From: Phanerochaete sordida
Taxonomy: Eukaryota; Basidiomycota; Agaricomycetes; Polyporales; Phanerochaetaceae
DNA length: 64,000 nucleotides
Direction of reading: 5' to 3'
Assembly (NCBI GenBank): GCA_019973155.2
Contig: BPQB01000023.1
Coordinates: 62,001 to 126,000 of the forward strand
Shown here: positions 1-13,046 of the stretch, in pieces
How the letters are laid out: each line of letters begins with the position of its first letter
Position numbering within the stretch: position 1 is the stretch's first letter
Notes under the pieces: model-generated
What the model was told of the DNA's origin: nothing
The model's input: the letters and a program-made list of their open reading frames with translations, nothing else
The model's database searches: none
Translations under genes and position numbers: made by a program

Positions 1-557
1 GTCCAATCGTTGCAAACGGTCTCGATGTAGTGTGTCACCGCTCTGCACGAGAAGTCAGCGTTCGAAGACTGCGGAGAGATAAAGGGGAACGCACAGGCCA
101 GCCTTGCTGTACTCTAGGTGATTGTCCGCAATGCATAGCACGCTCTGCCTGATATAGTTCAGACAGTGCTTCCGCAGCGGCGACTCCCGCCTCGAGACGT
201 AGTCTTCTCGCAATATGTCCAGACACCGAAGCTGGTGGAAGAGGGCGGACGTGTACGTCTGTGTCGTGTCTCCGTCTTGGAGATGTATGAGATGCCCTCC
301 GGAGGGCATCAGGTGCGCCCACTCTTCGGCCCCGACCGTCGTGTTGAGCTCGTAGCGAGTGGACGTGTCCAAGACCATCCTCACAGGGCGGTTACCCTCT
401 GTCTCGAGGTACCGCACCTTTCTGTCTGCAATATGCGTTAGTAGAGTTCGCTCGACGCGTTGAATGACTTACCAGAGGCGCTGCACGATGCCCCGGCCGT
501 CTGGAAGGCTAGCAGTGGCACCATAACCAGAGCGAAGAGCCCACAGGCGAGCTTCAT
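1..557 (-). CDS. UstYa/DUF3328-type oxidase-like protein, partial (runs off window start)
   Basis: I read the exons on the minus strand as 473-557, 95-425 and <1-42. Exon 1 encodes a signal peptide (MKLACGLFALVMVPLLAF). The body has the UstYa-family layout: HQLRC at residues 92-96, then HC at 115-116 followed by NYIRQ and IADNHLE. The third exon reads THYIETVCNDW, the usual conserved Cys-x-Asp-Trp tail. Family knowledge: UstYa-like proteins (DUF3328) are secretory-pathway oxidases that cyclise or oxidise peptides in dikaritin RiPP pathways. Oddity: the second His of the HxxHC motif is Arg here, so activity may be changed or lost. The gene is divergent from the intact paralog at 941-1604. The 3' end lies outside the window, so the truncation comes from the window edge. 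The intron joins keep phase. Confidence 0.85.
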
Positions 558-940: not shown

Positions 941-1604
941 ATGAAGCGCAGTCTACTGCTTGCGTTCGCTCTTTGTCTTGCGATCATAACTACCGGCATC
1001 CGGCTGCATCACCGCTTCACGTCGAAGCCCCTCAACCCTAGGCACGATTATGCCGCCTGTGATGGTACGCAGAGACGTCTGTCGTTTTTCAGTGCACTGC
1101 TCACGAGATACCGCAGAACACAGTCTCGCTCCATGTCTCGCCATCGACCCTCATCCCGTCGAGATGATCCTGGAGGAGACAGTGCGGTACGACGTCGGCA
1201 GCAAGCTCTCCAACCTCGAGTGGCTCTCGACGCGCGCCCCATGGGGCAACGGCGGCTACGTCCGGCTCGGGGCGGACCACAGCGTGTACGGCATCGCGAT
1301 GGTGCACCAGCTGCACTGCGTCGAGATGCTCGCACGTGCGCTCGCGGACGCGACGACGCCCATGGCGACGCCGCCGCACATCGCGCACTGCCTGCAGTAC
1401 CTCAAGCAGCTCTTCCTCTGCGCCACGGACACGACGCTCGAGCCGTACGACTTCGCCAGCCACGACTTTGCGGCATGCCCCGTCGGCGCCGCGCGCACGT
1501 GCCGCGACTGGGCGGCGGTGTATGACGCGGCGGACGAGAACTACGGGCGGTGGACCGCGCACGTCGAGGCGTCCGCCAACGCTTCGGTGCCGGCGCCGGC
1601 GTGA
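941..1604 (+). CDS. UstYa/DUF3328-type oxidase-like protein
   Basis: The exons are 941-1064 and 1117-1604, giving 203 residues. An N-terminal hydrophobic segment (MKRSLLLAFALCLAII) is either a signal peptide or a type II membrane anchor. All three family hallmarks are visible: HQLHC at residues 105-109, HC at 132-133 followed by LQYLKQ and CATDTTLE, and TCRDW at 169-173. The double HxxHC/HC motif is the proposed metal-binding active site of UstYa proteins, which oxidatively modify Kex2-released core peptides in ascomycete ustiloxin, cyclochlorotine and asperipin pathways. The single intron is phase 1 in the same relative place as in the divergent neighbour. Two candidate precursor genes lie within 7 kb downstream. 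The family assignment is strong; the substrate is inference. Confidence 0.92.
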
Positions 1605-2313
1605 CCGACAGCCCGCGTGAGTCCTGGCTCGGGCGGTCCGCACAGCCTGCTGACCCTTCTGCGCAGAACGCGTTGCCCCCTGCCACATAAGCTTTAGTGC
1701 GAATGATGTCGAGAGATCCAGAGGACCTCCCAAGCATCTTTTCCGGAGGGCGATGTCGGCATCGCCGGAGAACCTTGTGCGTGGGCGAGGCGCGGGCGCG
1801 TCGCGCGCGGGCTTTCGGAAGCTGATCCCTCGTGCGACGCGTCGCAGCAACGCCAGGGCCGCGGGCTCTGCGCGGATCGAATACATCATTGCTGTACATT
1901 GCATCAGCGAGCTTCAAAAGAGGGCGGTACTGCGAGCGGGCACCCCGTGGGCGAGAATGGCTATACCTAGACTAGTAGGGTGCCCTGGGATGCCTCCCCC
2001 GTCCCGCGATGTACGCGCGCGCGAGTATCAGCGCCGCCTGTCGTGCGCCGCGTGCACAATCTGCGAGGAGCACCGCTGAGAGTAGCCCTGTGCAGCGCAG
2101 CCGGTAGACTAGCGGGCTCCGCATGGCCGCGAACGTGGCCGTGCGGCTGCGTTCCAGCGGACCTTACGAGCTTCCAGCATGGCGTATTTCTGCATGCACT
2201 TGGATATCAAAAGGCGCGGCTGGTGCCCTGCTCCATCCGGCACCAGTGGTTCGTATATATAACCCGCCATGTGAGCTCCTGCCTCTGACATTTCATTTCG
2301 CGAATTGCCAGTC
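1605..2313. other. Intergenic, 709 bases
   Basis: No coding region is supported. The last 60 bases hold the promoter of the precursor gene at 2314. Small open frames here have no signal peptide or recognisable motif. Confidence 0.5.
2254..2262 (+). promoter_or_regulatory. TATA box of the first precursor gene
   Basis: TATATATAA lies about 52 bases before the ATG at 2314. The second precursor gene has a weaker ATATAGAT at the same distance from its ATG, which supports both being real transcription units. Confidence 0.55.
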
Positions 2314-2531
2314 ATGCAAGCGCTCCTCCGCGTCGCGACCCTTTACACGCTATTCGCGATGGCCTTGGCAGCTGTGAAAGGGCAAGCATGCGATGGTGTG
2401 TCGGGCTTATGGGCTGCGACCTAGGACTCGGTGCTGATGCGGTAGCTCTCGCAGGGGAGCCGGTTTGGCTTGATGGGCCAGAAGACTCCGCCCTCGACAA
2501 ACGTGGCGAATGCACAAAGCCTACGTTCTGA
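2314..2531 (+). CDS. Candidate RiPP precursor peptide 1 (secreted, single Kex2-released core)
   Basis: The exons are 2314-2395 and 2455-2531 (intron 59 bases, GT-AG, phase 1), giving 52 residues. Residues 1-24 form a signal peptide (MQALLRVATLYTLFAMAL and onward). An ACD motif spans the splice site, followed by an acidic spacer with EPVWL. A KR dibasic site at residues 43-44 precedes the last eight residues, GECTKPTF, then the stop. The paralog at 8020-8236 has the same intron position and phase, signal peptide, EPxWL spacer, KR site and PTF end, which argues strongly for a real gene. UstYa genes sit 0.7 kb away. Kex2 release of the C-terminal peptide, and its oxidation by UstYa, are inference. 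There is no CaaX box, so it is not a mating pheromone. I know of no described family with these cores. Confidence 0.75.
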
Positions 2532-3026
2532 AGGTGCGGATCCGCGTGGCGTTCGATCTTGGACTCAGTGAAGCTCATGAACACCCCTCCCGTCAGACAC
2601 GCCACACTCTAGATTACCCTCGAGCCCATGAACCTGTCGTACACGCTACTACAATCACCATAGCCTATAATTCACGACAGCATCCACTTTCTACAGTAGA
2701 TTTAATTCGTGTACGTACCAATCGAATGCTCCTGCTCCTGTCATCCGAGGTTGTAGAGCCGGTTCACCAGGTGTCGTAGAGTGATGTGCGTGGAGCAAGA
2801 TCTGTGAGCGGGGTCTCTTCGAACATCGGACCAAGTGCATGCCATGGCGCGTGCGCAGAATTTGAGGGCCCAATAACCACTGTTGAACTACAGCCTGGCT
2901 ACCACTTTTGTTACATACAACAATGCCAACGAAGAAAGACTATATACACCATAAGACCCATATATCCCAAGAATGAATGATGAACCCAGTGGACGCCGCG
3001 GCAGCAGCCAGATCGCGCAGATCCCT
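2532..3026. other. Intergenic, 495 bases
   Basis: This is the shared 3' flank of the convergent precursor 1 gene and glycine-rich gene A. I see no gene. Confidence 0.5.
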
Positions 3027-3774
3027 TCATGCACCGTTACCACCCTTGCCGCCAGTCGCGCTCCCAGTCTTGCTGATCCCGCCATTCCCGCCCTGCGCGC
3101 TGCCGACGAAAACGCCGCTGCCGCTCGTGTAGACCGAGCCGCCGTTGGCAGAGCCAGAGTTGCCCGACACGGCGCTACCGCCCTGTCCGCCGTTGCCACC
3201 GAGCCCGCCGAGGAAGCTGTTGCCGCCATCGCCGCCGCTGCCGCCAGTCGCGCTGCCGGTGATGCTGGCACCGCCGTTCCCGCCCTTCACTGCTCGAGGG
3301 TCAGCATATGCTCGAGGCGGGGTGAAGGAGAAGACGTACGAGAGCCGGCGAAGATGCCGCTGCCAGAGGTGTAGACGGAGCCGCCGTCGGCGGAGCCAGA
3401 GTTGCCAGACTGCGCGTTGCCTCCCTGGCCGCCGTCGCCGCCGAGGAAGCCGAAGCCTCCGCTGCCGCCGTTCCCGCCAGTGGCGGAGCCCGAGATGGAC
3501 GCGCCGCCGTTCCCGCCGGCCGCTGCAGACATAATGTGAGCTACGGGTCTGCTGCGAGCACGAGGGACTAACCGTGGGCGACGGAGACGGGGCCCCAGCC
3601 GTAGCCGGTGGTGTAGACGTTGCCGCCGTTGGCGCTGCCGGAGGAGCCGCTGACTGCGTTGCCGCCGTTGCCGCCCTGGCCGCTGGCGAAGGGGAGGAAG
3701 CCGCCTGGGGCGGGGGCGGCTACGGTGCTGCCGGCGACAGAGACAGCGATGAAAGCGACGAAAGAAGAGCGCAT
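3027..3774 (-). CDS. Secreted glycine-rich repeat protein A
   Basis: The exons (minus) are 3573-3774, 3340-3522 and 3027-3289, giving 215 residues. The signal peptide MRSSFVAFIAVSVAGSTVAA is followed by APAPGGF and then three imperfect repeats of about 60 residues. Each repeat carries GGNGG runs, a serine-rich SGxSGSAnGG patch and a VYTSGSGxF segment, and the introns fall between repeats. It lacks Cys after the signal and is extremely Gly/Ser/Asn rich, like structural cell-wall or matrix proteins. The close paralog at 6463-7207 is divergent from it and shares exon 1 (202 bases) and exon 2 (183 bases) lengths exactly. The function is unknown. A TATATAAG box lies about 100 bases upstream on the minus strand. 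Confidence 0.85.
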
Positions 3775-4463
3775 TTTGAAAGGTGTGCGAAGTGGAGGAG
3801 AGAAGGCGAGGATGTGAAGACTGATTCAAAGACCCGAAGAGCCTGGTCTGGATGGATGATGGAGGGCACGCTTATATACCTCTGCACAGTGTGCATATGC
3901 TGAGCTTGCGAGGGCCGAGAGAGGCTCAGGAGCGTAAAGACGCGAAAGCCCTTCTGTGTGCCTTGAGGGGCTCAAGAGACTCTGCGCCTCCTCCGCACGA
4001 CACTGGCTGGCCTAGATACTGATCGCGAGGAGATTCTCATGAAACAGGAGCACGCGGCGGTGGCTTCGAGAGCCGGGGATGCTCTGTGTCCTGAACGATC
4101 GCCGTGGCCTAGAACACAACAGCGGCAGCGCGATTGCGAAAGTGGGGCATTATTTTGTGCGAGCATTGCATTTGGAATTGCCAGTCTCAATCGTAGAGGA
4201 CTCGCGGGGATTCTGTACTACTGACTGCAGTAGTCAGCGTGGAGACAGCGAGATATCGTGCCTGAACTCACAGCCTTCGAAGACGAAGAGAGACAGGAGA
4301 GATTGGCGGCTCTGCACTGCGATGCCGTCGCACTGAGTACGCAACTGGAGCACGGTATTCTGCGATTTTACCCTCAGAGTTACGCCAGCTTCATTCTAGG
4401 CCAGCCAGGTCTGTAATTGAGCATAGCTTTCCAAGCGGGAGATGCTGGTTCGACTTGAACTTC

Positions 4464-4655
4464 CATCGGCACAAAGATCCTGACGTTATATCGCATTATA
4501 ACCTGCTGAGGCAAATTTTACCGTGTTTTGGGGGCATTGTCATGCAATATAAACCTTCGGATCGCAATAAGTCGCATTATGATGCGATATAAACCCCCGA
4601 CAGCAGGTTATATTGCGATATTAACCAATATAACGTCAGGGACTTTGTGCCGATG
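4464..4655. mobile_element. Hairpin MITE-like element, 192 bp
   Basis: The terminal inverted repeats start CATCGGCACAAAG and differ at two positions over about 28 bases (ending GACGTTATAT). The inverted repeat continues inward with CGCATTATAACCTGCTG at 4492-4508 matching CAGCAGGTTATATTGCG at 4601-4617. The middle is AT-rich with small direct repeats ending ATATAAAC. There is no coding capacity. I see no clear target-site duplication, so the exact ends and the parent transposon superfamily are open. Confidence 0.72.
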
Positions 4656-6366
4656 TCGCTGCCTCAAGCCAGCGCTTCTCGACACGTGGCGTCCTTTGGC
4701 TCTGTTAGGATCTAAAGCCGTTGCCAAACACAACCAAGCTCGCTCTGCCACGAGCGACTCGGCATCGCTCTGCAGCTGCCCTCAGACCATGCCTACGTGC
4801 ACACTTCGTCCTCGCTCAGCTCTAGCAGAATTATTCTTCTAAAACCTTTGTGGTTACTGCTCTCCTTGATTGTGAGGGACAAAATGAGCGAGGCACGATC
4901 CAGTCTCGACCAGCGATCGGAGAGTTGCGAGACCAACGGATGCCGGGATGCTCTTGAGTCCAAGTGTCGCCGCGTCGAGGCATGGCCCGCTCCTGACTGT
5001 GAGTACGCAGATTTCTGCTCAATATGTTTCATGTCTCTAAAAAGGTAACAATAGTGACCCGAGAGAGTGCTGGGCGTTGGCAAGGCGAGGCCTGCCTGCC
5101 ACTTCCAGCCTCTACTACCCACGGCAGGGAATCCCATGCCAGCCAGGGAGACACACCAGCCCCTGGTTCGACGCTGAGCGGGGATAGAGCGACATTATCT
5201 GCGCCTCCTGGGTAGCCAGCAGCTTGACTTCGGTGTTAACGGACCCGCGGAGGGCGATCGCGTTTATTGCAAGGTTTGCCGAACGCGTGCCGAGCGAACT
5301 CGTCCTTATTCCTGGACCAGATCAGGTACGGAGAACCGAAAAGCCGTCGGCTGCTCGGCTTCTGACGCCCTGCTTCGCTGCCGATCGCTATTCACTCATT
5401 CTGGATAGGGGAACAAACGATCGCACCGCCCCTTCGCCCCCGCGATCCGAGGACGAAACACGACGCGTGTGCCGAACAACCAGACATTCGCTGAAGCTCG
5501 AGCCGTCGAAGAGACGACCGTTATACAAATTATACGAATGGGGAATGCTGAGAGGCTCGAAAGGTAAGCGAGGTCCCCTGACTCCTGAGCAGCAGCAGGG
5601 GGACCGACCCGAGGCAACTACGACTGATAGGACGCGCAGGCATCAACGATACTCAAAATTATCGGAGAACGCGACGATCTGCAGCAAACTACGACGCGAC
5701 GCGTCGTGTGCATGCCCAACGTCATCCCGAGGTCGTATCCGCTGGAGCAGCCATGTGGTGCAAAGCAGCCGGGCCCGACCACTCCTGCTCACCAGCAGGT
5801 GGACAACACAGACAAACAAAGACCGCTTCGAGAGATGCCGCTCCCGTTGCGCCTCGCATATGCTTCCGCGCAGCCTGGGCCTCTCCTCTCTGCTAACTCC
5901 TGGTTGTCAAGGACACCGATCGCTCAGACCGTGGTCCTTGAGTCTCGTAGTCCCCACCTCCTCTCGTCCTAGATAGGTGAGTAATCCCTGCGTGCTCCAG
6001 ACTCTGTCTTTCACGACCTTCTCAGGAGCAAGAAGATCCTATTAGGAGAGCTTGTGACCATAGAGGTGTGTTTCATCGTTCTCTCCTCGGAGAACGCTGT
6101 CCGATATGACCTGTATCTACAGATCTCGCTGTCGGTCTGGTCGAAGTCGTGTTCGTAAAGACGATCGTTCAGGGCATTACTACGATGGCGAAGTGCGCTC
6201 GTGATTGCAGGAAGACCTCCTGACATCAGCCGCACTCAACTGACAATGCCTTCAGCCAGCCCACTCGCGCAGGCCGAGCACAACAGAGGGCCTTTGGGTT
6301 CTCCTAGCAGCCCGTAGCTCTCCTAGCGCATGAGTTCTCTCCCACAGCTCGCAGTGCACGAGAAGG

Positions 6367-6373
6367 TATAAAA
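6367..6373 (+). promoter_or_regulatory. TATA box of glycine-rich gene B
   Basis: TATAAAA lies about 90 bases before the ATG at 6463 and is followed by a pyrimidine-rich stretch typical of strongly expressed fungal promoters. Confidence 0.6.
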
Positions 6374-6462
6374 GCCTCGCAGTCTGCTCACTGCCAAACC
6401 AGACTCGCCAAGTCTTCCGCCTAGTCTTCTCACACTCGCCTCACCACCTCTTCGCCTCCACA

Positions 6463-7207
6463 ATGCGCTCCTCCTTCGTGGCTTTCATCATCCTCTCCGT
6501 CGTCGGCCGCACCATCGCTGCGCCCGCGCCCGGCGGCTTTCTCCCCTTCGTCAGCGGCCAAGGCGGAAACGGCGGCAGCGCGGTCAGCGGCTCCTCCGGC
6601 AGCGCCAACGGTGGCAGCGTCTACACCACCGGCTCCGGCTGGGGCCCTGTCGTCGTCGGCCACGGTAAGCACCTTCATCTCCGCGGACACCAGTGCCGTT
6701 GCTCACGAGTGTCCCTAGCGGCCGGCGGAAACGGCGGCGCGTCCATCTCGGGCTCCGCCACTGGCGGGAACGGCGGCAGCGGAGGCTTCGGCTTCCTCGG
6801 CGGCGATGGTGGCAAGGGAGGCAACGCGCAGTCGGGCAACTCTGGCTCCGCTGACGGCGGCTCCGTCTACACCTCTGGCAGCGGCGTATTCGCCGGCTCT
6901 CGTACGTCTTCTCTTTCGCCCCGCCTCGAGCATGTGCTGATCCTCGAGCACAGTCAAGGGCGGGAACGGCGGCGCCAGCATCACCGGCAGCGCCACCGGC
7001 GGAAGCGGCGGCGACGGCGGATTCGGCATCGTTGGCGGAAACGGCGGCAAGGGGGGCAGCGCCGTCTCAGGAAACTCTGGCTCTGCGAATGGCGGCTCGG
7101 TCTACACGAGCGGCAGCGGGGTCTTCGTCGGCAGCGCGCAGGGCGGGAACGGCGGGATCAGCAAGAGCGGAAGCGCGACGGGCGGCGCGGGTGGCAACGG
7201 GGCCTGA
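6463..7207 (+). CDS. Secreted glycine-rich repeat protein B
   Basis: The exons are 6463-6664, 6719-6901 and 6954-7207, giving 212 residues. The signal peptide MRSSFVAFIILSVVGRTIAA and APAPGGF are followed by three repeats with GGNGG runs and VYTSGSG segments, nearly identical to gene A. The intron positions and phases are the same. The main differences are in the third repeat (GFGIVGGNGG against GNSFLGGLGG). A role as an extracellular structural or hydrophilic matrix protein is inference from composition. The strong TATAAAA box suggests abundant expression. It lies between the two candidate precursor genes, but nothing in the sequence ties it to peptide synthesis. Confidence 0.88.
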
Positions 7208-8019
7208 GGACCGCGTCTGCGCGGTGCTGCTCCTGTCTCAAAAGGCTGAATCAGGGTTCTCGTGATCTATCCGGGCTATCTGTTCTTTTTGGGCTTTTGG
7301 GGATTGTATTCATGGGATGATTCTGCGCAAATATACTTGTCCACGTTAAGGTTGGATCGTGCGGTGGAGTAAATGGAGGGCTCGTTGCGTGGTCGCGCAC
7401 TGCATGTTTGCGATAGGCAATAGGCATCACAGCGAGCTAATATACTGCGAACCTTATACCTGAGGAGGCGCGACAAGCACATCACTCGCCCCGCGGGCAG
7501 TTGCGCTTGGGGTATATTGCAGAAGATCGCTATGATGCGACGCGTAGCGGCTTCACCAGAGCCGAGTGGAGACAAGAGGCGTAGCCGGATCACATGCACC
7601 GCTACCGCACATTGCATACCTGCAGGCGACGGCGACCTGCGGGCAAACAGAGCTAGCCCAGTGATGGCCCGCACTGCGCATAGATTCTATGCACCGCCTG
7701 CGCTGTCTGGTAGCGGATCCGGAGATAGCAGTGGGTGTGCACTCATGCCCAGACTGTGCATTAAACCCAGTCCGGCAGTGTGCTTTTAAGTCCCTCGTAG
7801 CCGCGAACGTTGCCATCGCCATGGGGATGCGCCTGTGGAGGGACCTAGCCGAGCATTCGCCGAGAGGAAACACTGCTGCTATGCTCAGTTAGTCGTTTGC
7901 GGGCGTGTCCAGCATCCTGCTGGCTCCTGGAGGCTATGTAGTCGAAGACTAGCGGTACTCATATAGATCTTGTGTGTCCGCTCACCACATACAGACTGTC
8001 ACAGCTCCCCGCTCCCGCC
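7208..8019. other. Intergenic, 812 bases
   Basis: No gene is supported. It ends with the promoter of the second precursor (ATATAGAT near 7961). The stretch CCGCGAACGT near 7801 recurs near 2125 upstream of the first precursor and could be a shared site or chance. Confidence 0.45.
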
Positions 8020-8236
8020 ATGCAGATACTACTCCGCCTTGTAGCTACGTTCGCTTTGCTCGGGCTGGTCATAGATTCTGTTCAAGCTCTTGAAGCGTGC
8101 GATGATGTCGGTGCGTAAATGATATCAAAATCGAGGGCTATCTATATTCTATAACCACCGTCCAGAGCCAAACTGGTTGGAAGACAGGGACGAGGGTGCT
8201 CTGGGCAAGCGCGGAGCGTGCCGGCCTACCTTCTGA
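8020..8236 (+). CDS. Candidate RiPP precursor peptide 2 (secreted, single Kex2-released core)
   Basis: The exons are 8020-8110 and 8166-8236 (intron 55 bases, GTGCGT to CCAG, with a CTATAAC branch site, phase 1), giving 53 residues. A signal peptide (MQILLRLVATFALLGLVI and onward) precedes ACDD, then EPNWL and an acidic stretch with GALGKR. The last seven residues after KR are GACRPTF. The alignment with precursor 1 is end to end: the same MQxLLR start, ACD, EPxWL, KR and Cys-then-PTF ending, with a one-residue shorter core. Conservation around KR together with core variation is what a family of processed peptides would show. The nearest UstYa gene is 6.4 kb away. The product is unproven; a small secreted effector-like peptide is the main alternative. 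Confidence 0.75.
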
Positions 8237-9876: not shown

Positions 9877-11309
9877 CTACTGCCCCAGCCCGAGTTCAGC
9901 CATCAGGTCCTCAACGGTAGGAGAAGAACCTTGGCCCTGGGACTGCGAAGCCTTCTTCTTCTTCTTTTTGTTCTTGTTCTTGCGCTTCGGGGCATCGTCC
10001 GGGTCGACGCTCTCGCCAGGGTCAGCCTGTATGGCGAGCGGAGGTCGCTCAGGGTAGCGTCTCCACGCCTCGCTCTGCAGTACGTCTCCCAGCAGGCCAC
10101 AATACTGCATCGTCGTGGTCCCGGCGACCTCGATCTCGCGCTCAGTGACAGACCGCCCCGCGACGTCGCGCATGAACGCGCCGATCAGCTCAGCCTCGGC
10201 GTCGTCGAGCCCGTGCTGGATGTAGCGCACCGCGCGGTGCAGGCGCGCGTCGCGCAGCGCCGACACGCGGCGGCGCTCGGTGTAGATGTTCGCCGCGCCC
10301 TTGCGGATCGCGCGGTCGACGAAGTACGCGGGCGCGACGTCGATCGCGTGCGCGGCGAGCCGGGGCGGCGCGTACGGCGCGCTCTGCACGACCATGCACA
10401 GGTTGAACGTGAACACGCTCAGGTCGAGCAGCACCTCCTCGCCGCGCACGGTCGTGAAGTAGAGCCAGAAGTGGTGCGCCGGGTCTTGCCCGCGCACGTA
10501 CGTGCCCGTGGACCGCTTGCGGAACGCGAGGCGGTCGCTCGGATGCACCTTCACGCTGCCCGCGGCGATGCCGAAGTCTGCGATGGGCGAGGTGCGGTAC
10601 TGCAGCCGCGTGCGCACGCCACCTGTGTTGCGCCCAGACGTCGTCGTGTACATCTCGCCGAGCAGCGCGACGCAGAGCGCGGTCAGGAGCGGCAACGCAT
10701 TGCCCTGGCGCATGATGCGTTGCATCATCTTCCGCGCGACGGGCTCGGATTGGGCTAGGGGTGCCCACTGAAATAGGTCCGTGAACAGGCTGGTCCGTGT
10801 ATCGTCGACCTCGAGCAGCTTGGCTTGGAGACCGCTTGGCAGCTGTGAAGGTACAAGCGACGGATTCGGTTCGCTTACAACCTGGGACGTCACCGCGAAG
10901 TGAGGAGGGAGCGTCAAACAGCGCGTGAAATCTGCGAGCACTGCAAGCACTGGGTAGAAGGACTCGAGGTTGATGCGATGGGTTTGGCCTGAGAGCCCCG
11001 GTCAGAGATGGAGGGACACCAAAAGTGTGCCACGACGTACCGCAGTTCAACTTATGCTTCGGCCAGTCCTTGATCTGGCAATCTTCGGAGCAATAGATGC
11101 GCTGTGTAATCTCAACGAAACCCCTGTGTGCCATAGGTAGTCGTACGCACCTCTCCGCAACTTGAGCACAACCTTTGCCTGCCCTCCTCATTCACCCCAC
11201 AGACAGCGCAGCCACTCGACAAGTCCTTGAGCGGCAAGTAAACGGAGCTCATAGCGTGTGATCTGCCGCAATTACAGTCAGCTATCTCAAAGGCGAGAGG
11301 TGTGCTCAT
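9877..11309 (-). CDS. MYND zinc-finger protein, copy 1
   Basis: The exons (minus) are 11151-11309, 11041-11101 and 9877-10988, giving 443 residues. The N-terminus carries CNCGR, then CAVCG, CSSCGE, IYCSEDCQ and WPKHKLNC, the Cys pattern of a MYND-type zinc finger, which usually binds proline-rich partner proteins. The remaining 370 residues are an Agaricomycete-type domain I cannot name. It includes a conserved FWLYFTTVRGEEVLLDLS segment and a Lys-rich tract followed by a tail ending VEDLMAELGLGQ. A tandem paralog lies 275 bases upstream in the same orientation. The Lys tract may be a nuclear localisation signal. The molecular role is unknown. Confidence 0.87.
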
Positions 11310-11584: not shown

Positions 11585-13046
11585 TCAATCCCCCGCCGTG
11601 AGCTCAAGCTCACTCATCAGGCCCTCGACGGAGGAAGAGGAACCTTGCGCCGGGGACTACGTGGTCTCCTTCTCCTTCTTTTTCCTCTTGTCTTTGTGTT
11701 TTGGTCGACTGTCCGAATCGAGGCTCTCGTCGGGGTCGGTCTGTATGGCGAGCGGAGGCTCTTCTGGGTAATTCCTCCACAACTCGTCCTTCAGTACGCT
11801 GCCAAGAAGGCCGCAATACTGCATTGTGACGTCGCTCACAACTTCGACCTCGTTCTCCGTTATACTTCGCCCAGCGACGTCGGCCATGAAGGCTGTAATC
11901 AGCCCAACGTCAACCTCGTCGAGCCCACGCTGGATGTACCGCACCGCGTGATGCAGGCGTTCGTCGCGCAGGGCAGACACGCGGTGACGCTCGGTGTGGA
12001 CATCACCCGCGCCCGTGCGCAGCGCGCGGTCGACAAAGTATGCCGGCACGGCGTCGGCGGCGTACTCGGCGAGTTCGACGATTGCAGGCGGCGCGTAGGG
12101 CGCGCTCCGCACGACGCTGCACAGGTTGAACGTGAACACGCTCAGGTCGAGCAGCACCTCCGCGCCGCGCACGGGCTTGAAGTACAGCCAGAAGTGGCGC
12201 TCGGGGTCCTGCCCGCGCACGTACACCCCTGTCGACCGCCGGCGGAACGCGAGACGGTCGCTCGGATGCACCTTCACGCTGCCCGCGACGATGCCGAAGT
12301 CCGCGATGGGCAGGGCACGGTATTGCAGCCGCGTTCGCACGCCGCCGTGCGCGCGTCCCGATGTCGTGGTGTACATCACGCTGAGCAGCGCGACGCAGAG
12401 TGCGGTCAGGAGGGGCAGCGTGTTGCCCTGGCGCAGGACGCGCTGTCTCATCTTCTCCGCGATGGGCTCGGATCTTGCAAGGGGCGCCCATACCCGCGGA
12501 TCCATGCTCCAACATTCCTCCGTGTCGTCGACTTCCAGTACCTTGGCTTCGAGACCGCTCGGCAGCCGCGAGGGTACGAACGGCGGGTTCGGGTCGCTCA
12601 CGATCTGACCTTTGAACGCGAAAGGGGGAGGAAGCGAAGCGCAGCGCGTAAAGTCTACGATGACTGCGAGCATAGGATAGAAGGACTCGAGGTTGATGCG
12701 GTGTGTGGTGCCTAGGAGCCCCTGTCAGACATGAAGCGTACAGGAGCGTATCCAGACGTACCGCACTCGAGTTTATGTTGTGGCCAGTCTTTGAGCTGAC
12801 ACTGCTCAGAGCAGTAGATGCGCTGTGTAGATGTGAGAAAAATATATAGGGACGGTAGAGAATCGCGGGCACCTCGCCACAACTAGAGCACAACCTTTGC
12901 TTGCCCCCGCACATGCCCCCATCCTTGTTCGCTCCACAAACAGCGCAGCCTGTCGACAAATCTTTGAGCGGTAGATGGACAGAGCTCACGAAATGAGCTC
13001 TGCCGCAGTCACAGCTAGCGAGCTCCGAAGGAAAGAGCGTGCTCAT
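11585..13046 (-). CDS. MYND zinc-finger protein, copy 2 (C-terminal tail cut off by in-frame stop)
   Basis: The exons (minus) are 12873-13046, 12762-12822 and 11657-12711, giving 429 residues to the first stop. The intron positions and phases are identical to copy 1. MYND Cys residues are present (CDCGR, CAVCG, CSSCGE, IYCSEQCQ, WPQHKLEC), with a small insertion MCGGK near CAVCG. The coding frame stops at TAG (11657-11659) right after the Lys-rich tract. The same frame continues for 23 codons with GSSSSVEGLMSELEL, clearly matching the copy 1 tail, to a second stop at 11585-11587. Copy 2 has therefore lost the conserved tail by a nonsense change, or the stop is read through. The feature end covers the lost tail. 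Confidence 0.85.

What the first reader, a model, noticed from the sequence alone, without database searches (positions are those of the whole stretch)
941..8236. Candidate undescribed basidiomycete RiPP system: UstYa enzymes with two single-core Kex2 precursor peptides
Seen: two paralogous 52/53-residue genes with a signal peptide, ACD motif, EPxWL spacer, Lys-Arg site and short C-terminal peptides GECTKPTF and GACRPTF, lying beside two UstYa/DUF3328-type genes. Known: in ascomycetes UstYa proteins modify Kex2-released core peptides (dikaritins), whose precursors usually carry many repeated cores. Inferred: the C-terminal peptide is released by Kex2 and oxidised or crosslinked, possibly through Cys, Thr or Phe. 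A single core at the extreme C-terminus and a basidiomycete host would both be new.
Basis: partly seen in the sequence, partly recalled or inferred. Interest (0 to 1): 0.93.

Follow-up and report, generated by a model that had tools for sequence, protein, structure and literature searches.

The report
Single-core Kex2 peptides beside UstYa oxidases
A wood-rotting fungus carries small, unannotated genes that look like precursors of short secreted peptides, each with one peptide at its end, next to enzymes of a family that modifies such peptides in other fungi; if they work together, searches that look only for repeated peptides would miss this kind of gene.

Summary
In Phanerochaete sordida YK-624, P1 (2314-2531) and P2 (8020-8236) are apparently unannotated paralogues: 45% identical, each with a phase-1 intron near the conserved Cys, diverging mostly at third codon positions. 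A probable third member, P3 (core SRCPYGPF), lies 18 kb left of the window at the matching end of an inverted 4-kb duplication; its sequence similarity alone is weak. The cluster has three UstYa genes: two canonical, one that has lost two of four HxxHC histidines. That canonical/degenerate pairing occurs at five loci, each with a But2-like gene nearby; the search found no sixth.

Kex2 precursors beside DUF3328/UstYa genes are already known in basidiomycetes (103 counted). The new element is the single, non-repeated C-terminal core, which published repeat-based mining would miss. Two other UstYa loci carry unrelated pairs of single-copy secreted-type peptides, with a KR site in three of those four genes.

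That UstYa enzymes modify these cores is inferred from proximity alone. No product or homologue in another species was found, and no expression data were available. A plain secreted Kex2 peptide remains a serious rival.

The parts
2314..2531 (+). P1, single-core precursor gene: exons 2314-2395 and 2455-2531, 52 aa, core GECTKPTF after KR
   Evidence: only its own exons were found genome-wide; not in the protein database
8020..8236 (+). P2, single-core precursor gene: exons 8020-8110 and 8166-8236, 53 aa, core GACRPTF after KR
941..1604 (+). UstYa-A (PsYK624_079260), 203 aa, N-terminal hydrophobic segment, two HxxHC motifs; exons 941-1064 and 1117-1604
   Evidence: exon ends read by eye
1..557 (-). 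UstYa-B (runs off the window's left end): degenerate motifs HQLRC and LRKHC; head-to-head with UstYa-A across about 383 bp
   Evidence: start codon placed by eye
3030..3774 (-). G1, glycine-rich protein with a hydrophobic N-terminus, one of four copies in the cluster
   Evidence: no Pfam match for the pieces tested
6463..7207 (+). G2, glycine-rich paralogue, divergent from G1; the G1-G2 block is an inverted copy of a block at C23:39427-43420 (84-86% over the main pieces)

Best explanation
P1 and P2 (and probably P3, 18 kb left of the window) are precursors of a single-core, Kex2-released peptide family made by a UstYa-type gene cluster. The hydrophobic N-terminus sends the precursor into the ER; the acidic segment from ACD through EPxWL acts as leader. 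The membrane-anchored UstYa-A/UstYa-B pair, perhaps with the adjacent But2-like protein, oxidises the short C-terminal core, most plausibly at the invariant Cys (core position 3) and/or the C-terminal Phe. Kexin then cuts after KR and a modified 7-8-mer is secreted. Shown by sequence: gene structures, paralogy of P1 and P2, coding constraint, hydrophobic N-terminus, KR site, UstYa neighbours, repeated A/B/But2-like association. Inferred: secretion, Kex2 cutting, and all modification chemistry.
For: Paralogous precursors with coding constraint. P3 has the same architecture: phase-1 intron after the Cys, WL, KR-xxC, final Phe, at the end of the inverted glycine-rich block that corresponds to P1. 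UstYa-A stop to P1 start is about 0.7 kb. Of 15 UstYa matches in the genome, 10 keep both HxxHC motifs and 5 have HxxRC plus loss of the first His of the second motif; one degenerate copy sits at each of five loci beside a canonical one. But2-like protein: 5 matches in the genome, one at each of those five loci, within 1.8 kb of a UstYa match (such counts are lower bounds). Kexin P-domain present. Other UstYa loci have their own single-copy secreted-type pairs: C2 (48%, E 1.7e-23, KR in both) and C74 (45%, E 2e-16, KR in one).
Against: No homologue in another species was found and no transcript or peptide data were available. The nearest paralogous A/B pair (C50) has no detectable P homologue in the 20 kb read. 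P3 is not significantly similar to P1 or P2 once the signal peptide is removed (1033 of 20000 shuffles reach the P2-P3 score and 2079 of 20000 the P1-P3 score; no hit at E<=1). P2 lies 6.4 kb from the nearest UstYa and P3 15.5 kb. A relative of the C74 peptides lies on C34, where no UstYa was found. P1 and P2 cores lack Tyr, the residue crosslinked in ustiloxins (recalled).
Confidence: 0.5

Rival explanations
1. P1-P3 give plain secreted Kex2 peptides (signals or antimicrobials), linear or with the core tied to the leader by a disulfide between the two invariant Cys (one in the leader, one in the core). The UstYa enzymes act on something else.
For: Each of the three precursors has exactly two Cys, both in aligned columns. 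The agaricomycete Kex2 repeat peptides detected in one study were linear and minimally modified (PMC9769878, abstract). No P homologue near the closest UstYa pair, C50.
Against: Co-location in one cluster; two other UstYa loci also carry their own single-copy secreted-type peptide pairs.
Confidence: 0.32
2. The cluster's oxidases act on another local product, such as the glycine-rich proteins (four copies in the cluster), and the P genes are bystanders carried by the same duplication.
For: The glycine-rich pair is duplicated as an inverted 4-kb block at about 84% identity, with P genes outside its ends.
Against: Glycine-rich relatives also occur on C105, C20 and C94, contigs where no UstYa was found; the other four A/B loci show no glycine-rich match, whose list is a lower bound.
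Confidence: 0.12
3. The open frames are chance or decayed fragments, for example of UstYa 5' exons, and are not expressed.
For: No annotation found; exon 1 of UstYa-A also ends in ACD followed by a phase-1 intron (read).
Against: Coding-type divergence between P1 and P2; intact splice sites; 0 matches to the full architecture in 10 simulated sets against three genes in the real sequence, though that pattern was drawn up after seeing the three genes, and looser patterns separate less well.
Confidence: 0.06

Closest known systems
Dikaritins (ustiloxin, phomopsin, asperipin-2a, victorin; UstYa/UstYb class)
   Same: Secretory-type precursor, Kex2 dibasic site before the core, paired DUF3328/UstYa genes alongside, with two HxxHC motifs in UstYa-A
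   Different: One core at the extreme C-terminus instead of repeated cores; a UstYa partner that has lost two histidines; a But2-like neighbour; no tyrosinase match in the cluster (the one match in the genome is on C15); basidiomycete host
Kex2-processed repeat proteins (KEPs) of basidiomycetes (Umemura 2020, PMC7329392; Vogt 2022, PMC9769878)
   Same: Signal peptide plus Kex2 sites; some lie near DUF3328 genes
   Different: In the 2020 survey KEPs need at least 3 tandem repeats of at least 8 aa and come from annotated proteins; P1-P3 have one core of 7-8 aa and were not found among database proteins
Lichen RiPP clans R1 and R2 (PMC12048977)
   Same: UstY genes with HxxHC motifs in clusters that have secretory-type Kex2 candidates but no repeated core
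   Different: Ascomycetes; a single core was only suggested as a possibility

Membership tests
Dikaritin | DUF3328/UstYa protein with two HxxHC motifs | tested here: met
   UstYa-A: HQLHC and HIAHC, PF11807 57 bits; UstYa-B has HQLRC and LRKHC, so it does not meet the motif itself
Dikaritin | Precursor with ER signal peptide | tested here: inconclusive
   Hydrophobic N-terminus by simple hydropathy only (scripts); SignalP was not available
Dikaritin | Kex2 dibasic site preceding the core | tested here: met
   KR directly before the last 7-8 residues in P1, P2 and P3; cleavage itself untested
Dikaritin | Multiple repeated cores | tested here: not met
   One core per precursor
Dikaritin | Accessory tyrosinase in the cluster | tested here: not met
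   The one PF00264 match in the genome at E<=0.001 is a short piece on C15 (exon-wise search); functional clusters lacking one or more accessory enzymes are reported (PMC12048977)
Dikaritin | Accessory methyltransferase, transporter or peptidase in the cluster | not tested
   only a few neighbouring frames were scanned against Pfam
Dikaritin | Oxidatively cyclised peptide product | not testable with these tools
   needs mass spectrometry
KEP (Kex2-processed repeat protein) | At least 3 tandem repeats of at least 8 aa between Kex2 sites | tested here: not met
   single core of 7-8 aa; definition read
Basidiomycete CaaX mating pheromone | C-terminal CaaX box | tested here: not met
   Cys is at -6 in P1, -5 in P2, -6 in P3 (sequence); CaaX rule recalled

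The most novel reading that the evidence does not exclude
Basidiomycetes have a distinct RiPP class. Non-repeated, single-core Kex2 precursors are modified by a conserved luminal module made of a canonical UstYa, a histidine-depleted UstYa partner and a But2-like protein, present several times per genome with unrelated cores at each locus. Repeat-based mining is blind to it, which would explain part of the low UstYa linkage reported for basidiomycete Kex2 precursors.
Probability: 0.3. Interest if true: 0.85.

Novelty: new variant of a known kind. Interest (0 to 1): 0.64.

Why it matters
Umemura 2020 found DUF3328 genes near only 6.1% of basidiomycete Kex2 repeat precursors against 30% in ascomycetes, and suggested that the cyclisation factor differs between the phyla or that cyclisation might hardly occur in basidiomycetes. 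P. sordida has 15 UstYa matches in eight gene groups whose substrates are unknown. If these are short single-core precursors missed by gene callers and by repeat filters, a set of fungal peptide products opens up, and the pairing of an intact with a histidine-depleted UstYa gives a direct handle on how this poorly understood oxidase family works.

Tried and rejected
Mating pheromone: rejected, no CaaX box. UstYa fold and active-site geometry: AlphaFold model too poor (pLDDT 61.5, pTM 0.33), so no fold search was run; no PDB relative by sequence (best E 0.68). P homologues in the fetched UstYa regions: none convincing by a P1/P2 profile in 8819 frames; the best frames that were not P1/P2 exons scored 12.5 bits (C26, E 0.07) and 10.2 bits (E 0.39), and the latter holds P3's exon 1. 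A six-frame listing of [KR]R-x-C endings was cut in display, so parts of C4, C74 and C26 were not seen there; the all-against-all listing was cut too. Homologues in 5.8 billion proteins: none, but the search needs three shared 5-letter words, so a diverged short peptide would be missed; genome searches with P1, P2 and P3 each returned only the query's own exons, missing the known paralogues, and so do not show absence. A mirror-image fourth precursor left of C23:39.4 kb: looked for by eye, not seen. Precursor-model ranking near versus far from UstYa (30 models; at score 0 or more, 9 near in 142 kb and 1 far in 122 kb) is not used as a test: it was exploratory, counts overlapping starts and pieces of larger genes, did not recover P2, gave P1 a wrong splice, and put P3 in the far class just below zero; one search was a retuned version. 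Simulations with looser patterns separate poorly: real 8 loose and 4 middle matches against 0-6 and 0-2 in 10 simulated sets. C10 candidate ending KRSCLN (C10:479561-) has no paralogue in the fetched regions; the C26 candidate ending LDEPFLKWF (C26:160761+) was not searched; both stay unproven. The inner splice of C2a differs between scans. One relative of the C74 peptides lies on C34, where no UstYa was found (E 9.8e-4, N-terminal half only): evidence against strict linkage.
Full report
WHERE IT IS. The 203-aa UstYa protein at 941-1604 is identical to annotated PsYK624_079260 of Phanerochaete sordida, of the order Polyporales; strain YK-624 is a white-rot fungus (PMC8530024, abstract seen in the listing). 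The window is C23:62001-126000 of a 40.8-Mb assembly.

THE PRECURSORS. P1 and P2 exist as described, with exons 2314-2395/2455-2531 and 8020-8110/8166-8236. They are 45% identical (BLASTP E 8e-13). Over 51 aligned codons, identity by position is 0.67, 0.69 and 0.39, with pN 0.31 and pS 0.74, so both behave as functional protein genes. P1 has a TATA-like run about 55 bases before its ATG, P2 a similar site and P3 a TTAAATAG (read by eye). Neither P1 nor P2 turned up in the protein database search, although the neighbouring UstYa did.

A THIRD MEMBER. Gene-model scanning found P3 at C23:43749-43971(-), 18 kb left of the window: a hydrophobic start, SCTSD with a phase-1 intron, WL, KR and SRCPYGPF. 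In the alignment of the three, the leader Cys, WL, KR, the Cys at core position 3 and the final Phe are invariant. Sequence similarity alone is weak: P2-P3 E 2e-7 with the signal peptide in a nine-sequence comparison without composition correction, nothing at E<=1 without it; 1033 and 2079 of 20000 shuffles reach the P2-P3 and P1-P3 scores. Position helps: a block of two divergent glycine-rich genes (C23:39427-43420) recurs inverted at 65027-69253 at about 84% identity, and P3 and P1 lie just outside corresponding ends in corresponding orientation. In 10 simulated sets of the 284 kb, 0 models had the full architecture against three genes (four models) in the real sequence, but that pattern was written after seeing them, and looser patterns occur in the simulated sets too.

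THE ENZYMES. The genome has 15 PF11807 matches. Ten keep both HxxHC motifs. Five have HxxRC and lack the first His of the second motif, one of them also the second His. Each of these five sits near a canonical copy: C23, C50, C10 and two places on C26. In the window, UstYa-B(-) and UstYa-A(+) are head to head over about 383 bp. A protein with a borderline But2 match (PF09792 21.9 bits, cut-off 24.2) has 5 matches in the genome, one at each of these five loci, 0.6-1.8 kb from the start coordinate of a UstYa match. A multi-span membrane-type family (no Pfam match over cut-off) also recurs at UstYa loci (C23 twice, C50, C10), but has three weaker matches elsewhere. I propose that A, B and the But2-like protein form one luminal machine; this is inference from co-location.

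OTHER UstYa LOCI. C2 has a tandem pair of single-copy secreted-type peptides with DKR before the last 33-36 residues (48%, E 1.7e-23). C74 has a pair (45%, E 2e-16), with KR in C74a and only AR in C74b, plus a weaker third (E 0.21 to C74a without the signal peptide). The C2 family was found only at C2; the C74 query also had one weak match on C34, without a known UstYa. C10 and C26 have single, unproven candidates. So single-copy secreted-type peptides at UstYa loci may be a general pattern in this fungus, but it was found by exploration, not by a preset test.

MECHANISM. Best reading (0.5): ER entry, oxidation of the core by UstYa-A/B, Kex2 release, secretion of a modified 7-8-mer. A kexin P-domain match is present. 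Nothing beyond sequence is shown. The main rival (0.32) is an unmodified or disulfide-linked Kex2 peptide; the agaricomycete Kex2 repeat peptides detected in PMC9769878 were linear and minimally modified (abstract and passages).

LITERATURE. Umemura 2020 (PMC7329392; abstract, passages, section 13): 103 of 1680 basidiomycete Kex2 repeat proteins have DUF3328 genes nearby; detection needs at least 3 repeats of at least 8 aa in annotated proteins. eLife 2022 (PMC8893723; passages): 16 UstYa-like genes in Pleurotus, probably involved in dikaritin production. BMC Genomics 2019 on Kex2 repeat proteins (PMC6339444; passages). Lichen RiPPs 2025 (PMC12048977; passages): clusters without repeated cores, single core suggested as a possibility; two HxxHC motifs proposed as the mark of RiPP-related DUF3328 proteins. 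Trichoderma RiPP mining (PMC7099791; passages). I found no description of single-core UstYa precursors, of the A/B/But2-like association, or of these peptides in the listings (open-licence PMC papers only) and the passages read.

VERDICT. The claim is a new variant of a known kind, strong as gene anatomy for P1 and P2, weaker for P3, and unproven as chemistry.

Noticed in passing
window 1-557 (-), C50:192742+, C10:476658-, C26:115158+, C26:159435-: Five UstYa paralogues share loss of HxxHC histidines (HxxRC in all five), each beside a canonical copy: a possible regulatory or structural partner subunit.
   Followed up: partly
C23:60453-60800 (-), left of the window: But2-like protein family with five matches in the genome, one at each of the five canonical/degenerate UstYa loci.
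   Followed up: partly
C2:1059640-1060902 (+) and C74:670-1639 (-): Two unrelated pairs of single-copy small secreted-type peptides next to other UstYa genes, with KR sites in C2a, C2b and C74a and AR in C74b.
   Followed up: partly
window 3030-3774 (-) and 6463-7207 (+); C23:39427-43420: Glycine-rich gene pair duplicated as an inverted 4-kb block, about 84% identical; further relatives on C105, C20 and C94.
   Followed up: partly
window 941-1116 and 2314-2455: Exon 1 of UstYa-A and of P1 both end in A-C-D followed directly by a phase-1 intron; precursor exon 1 may derive from the enzyme gene, or it may be chance.
   Followed up: no
C23:46696-47503 (+), C23:55693-56502 (-): Two inverted copies of a multi-span membrane-type gene in the same cluster (68% DNA identity), with relatives at C50 and C10 UstYa loci: a possible peptide receptor.
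   Followed up: no
window 9877-11001 (-) and 11657-12724 (-): Two adjacent paralogous genes with lysine-rich ends; the second had no Pfam match at E<=1, the first was not scanned.
   Followed up: no
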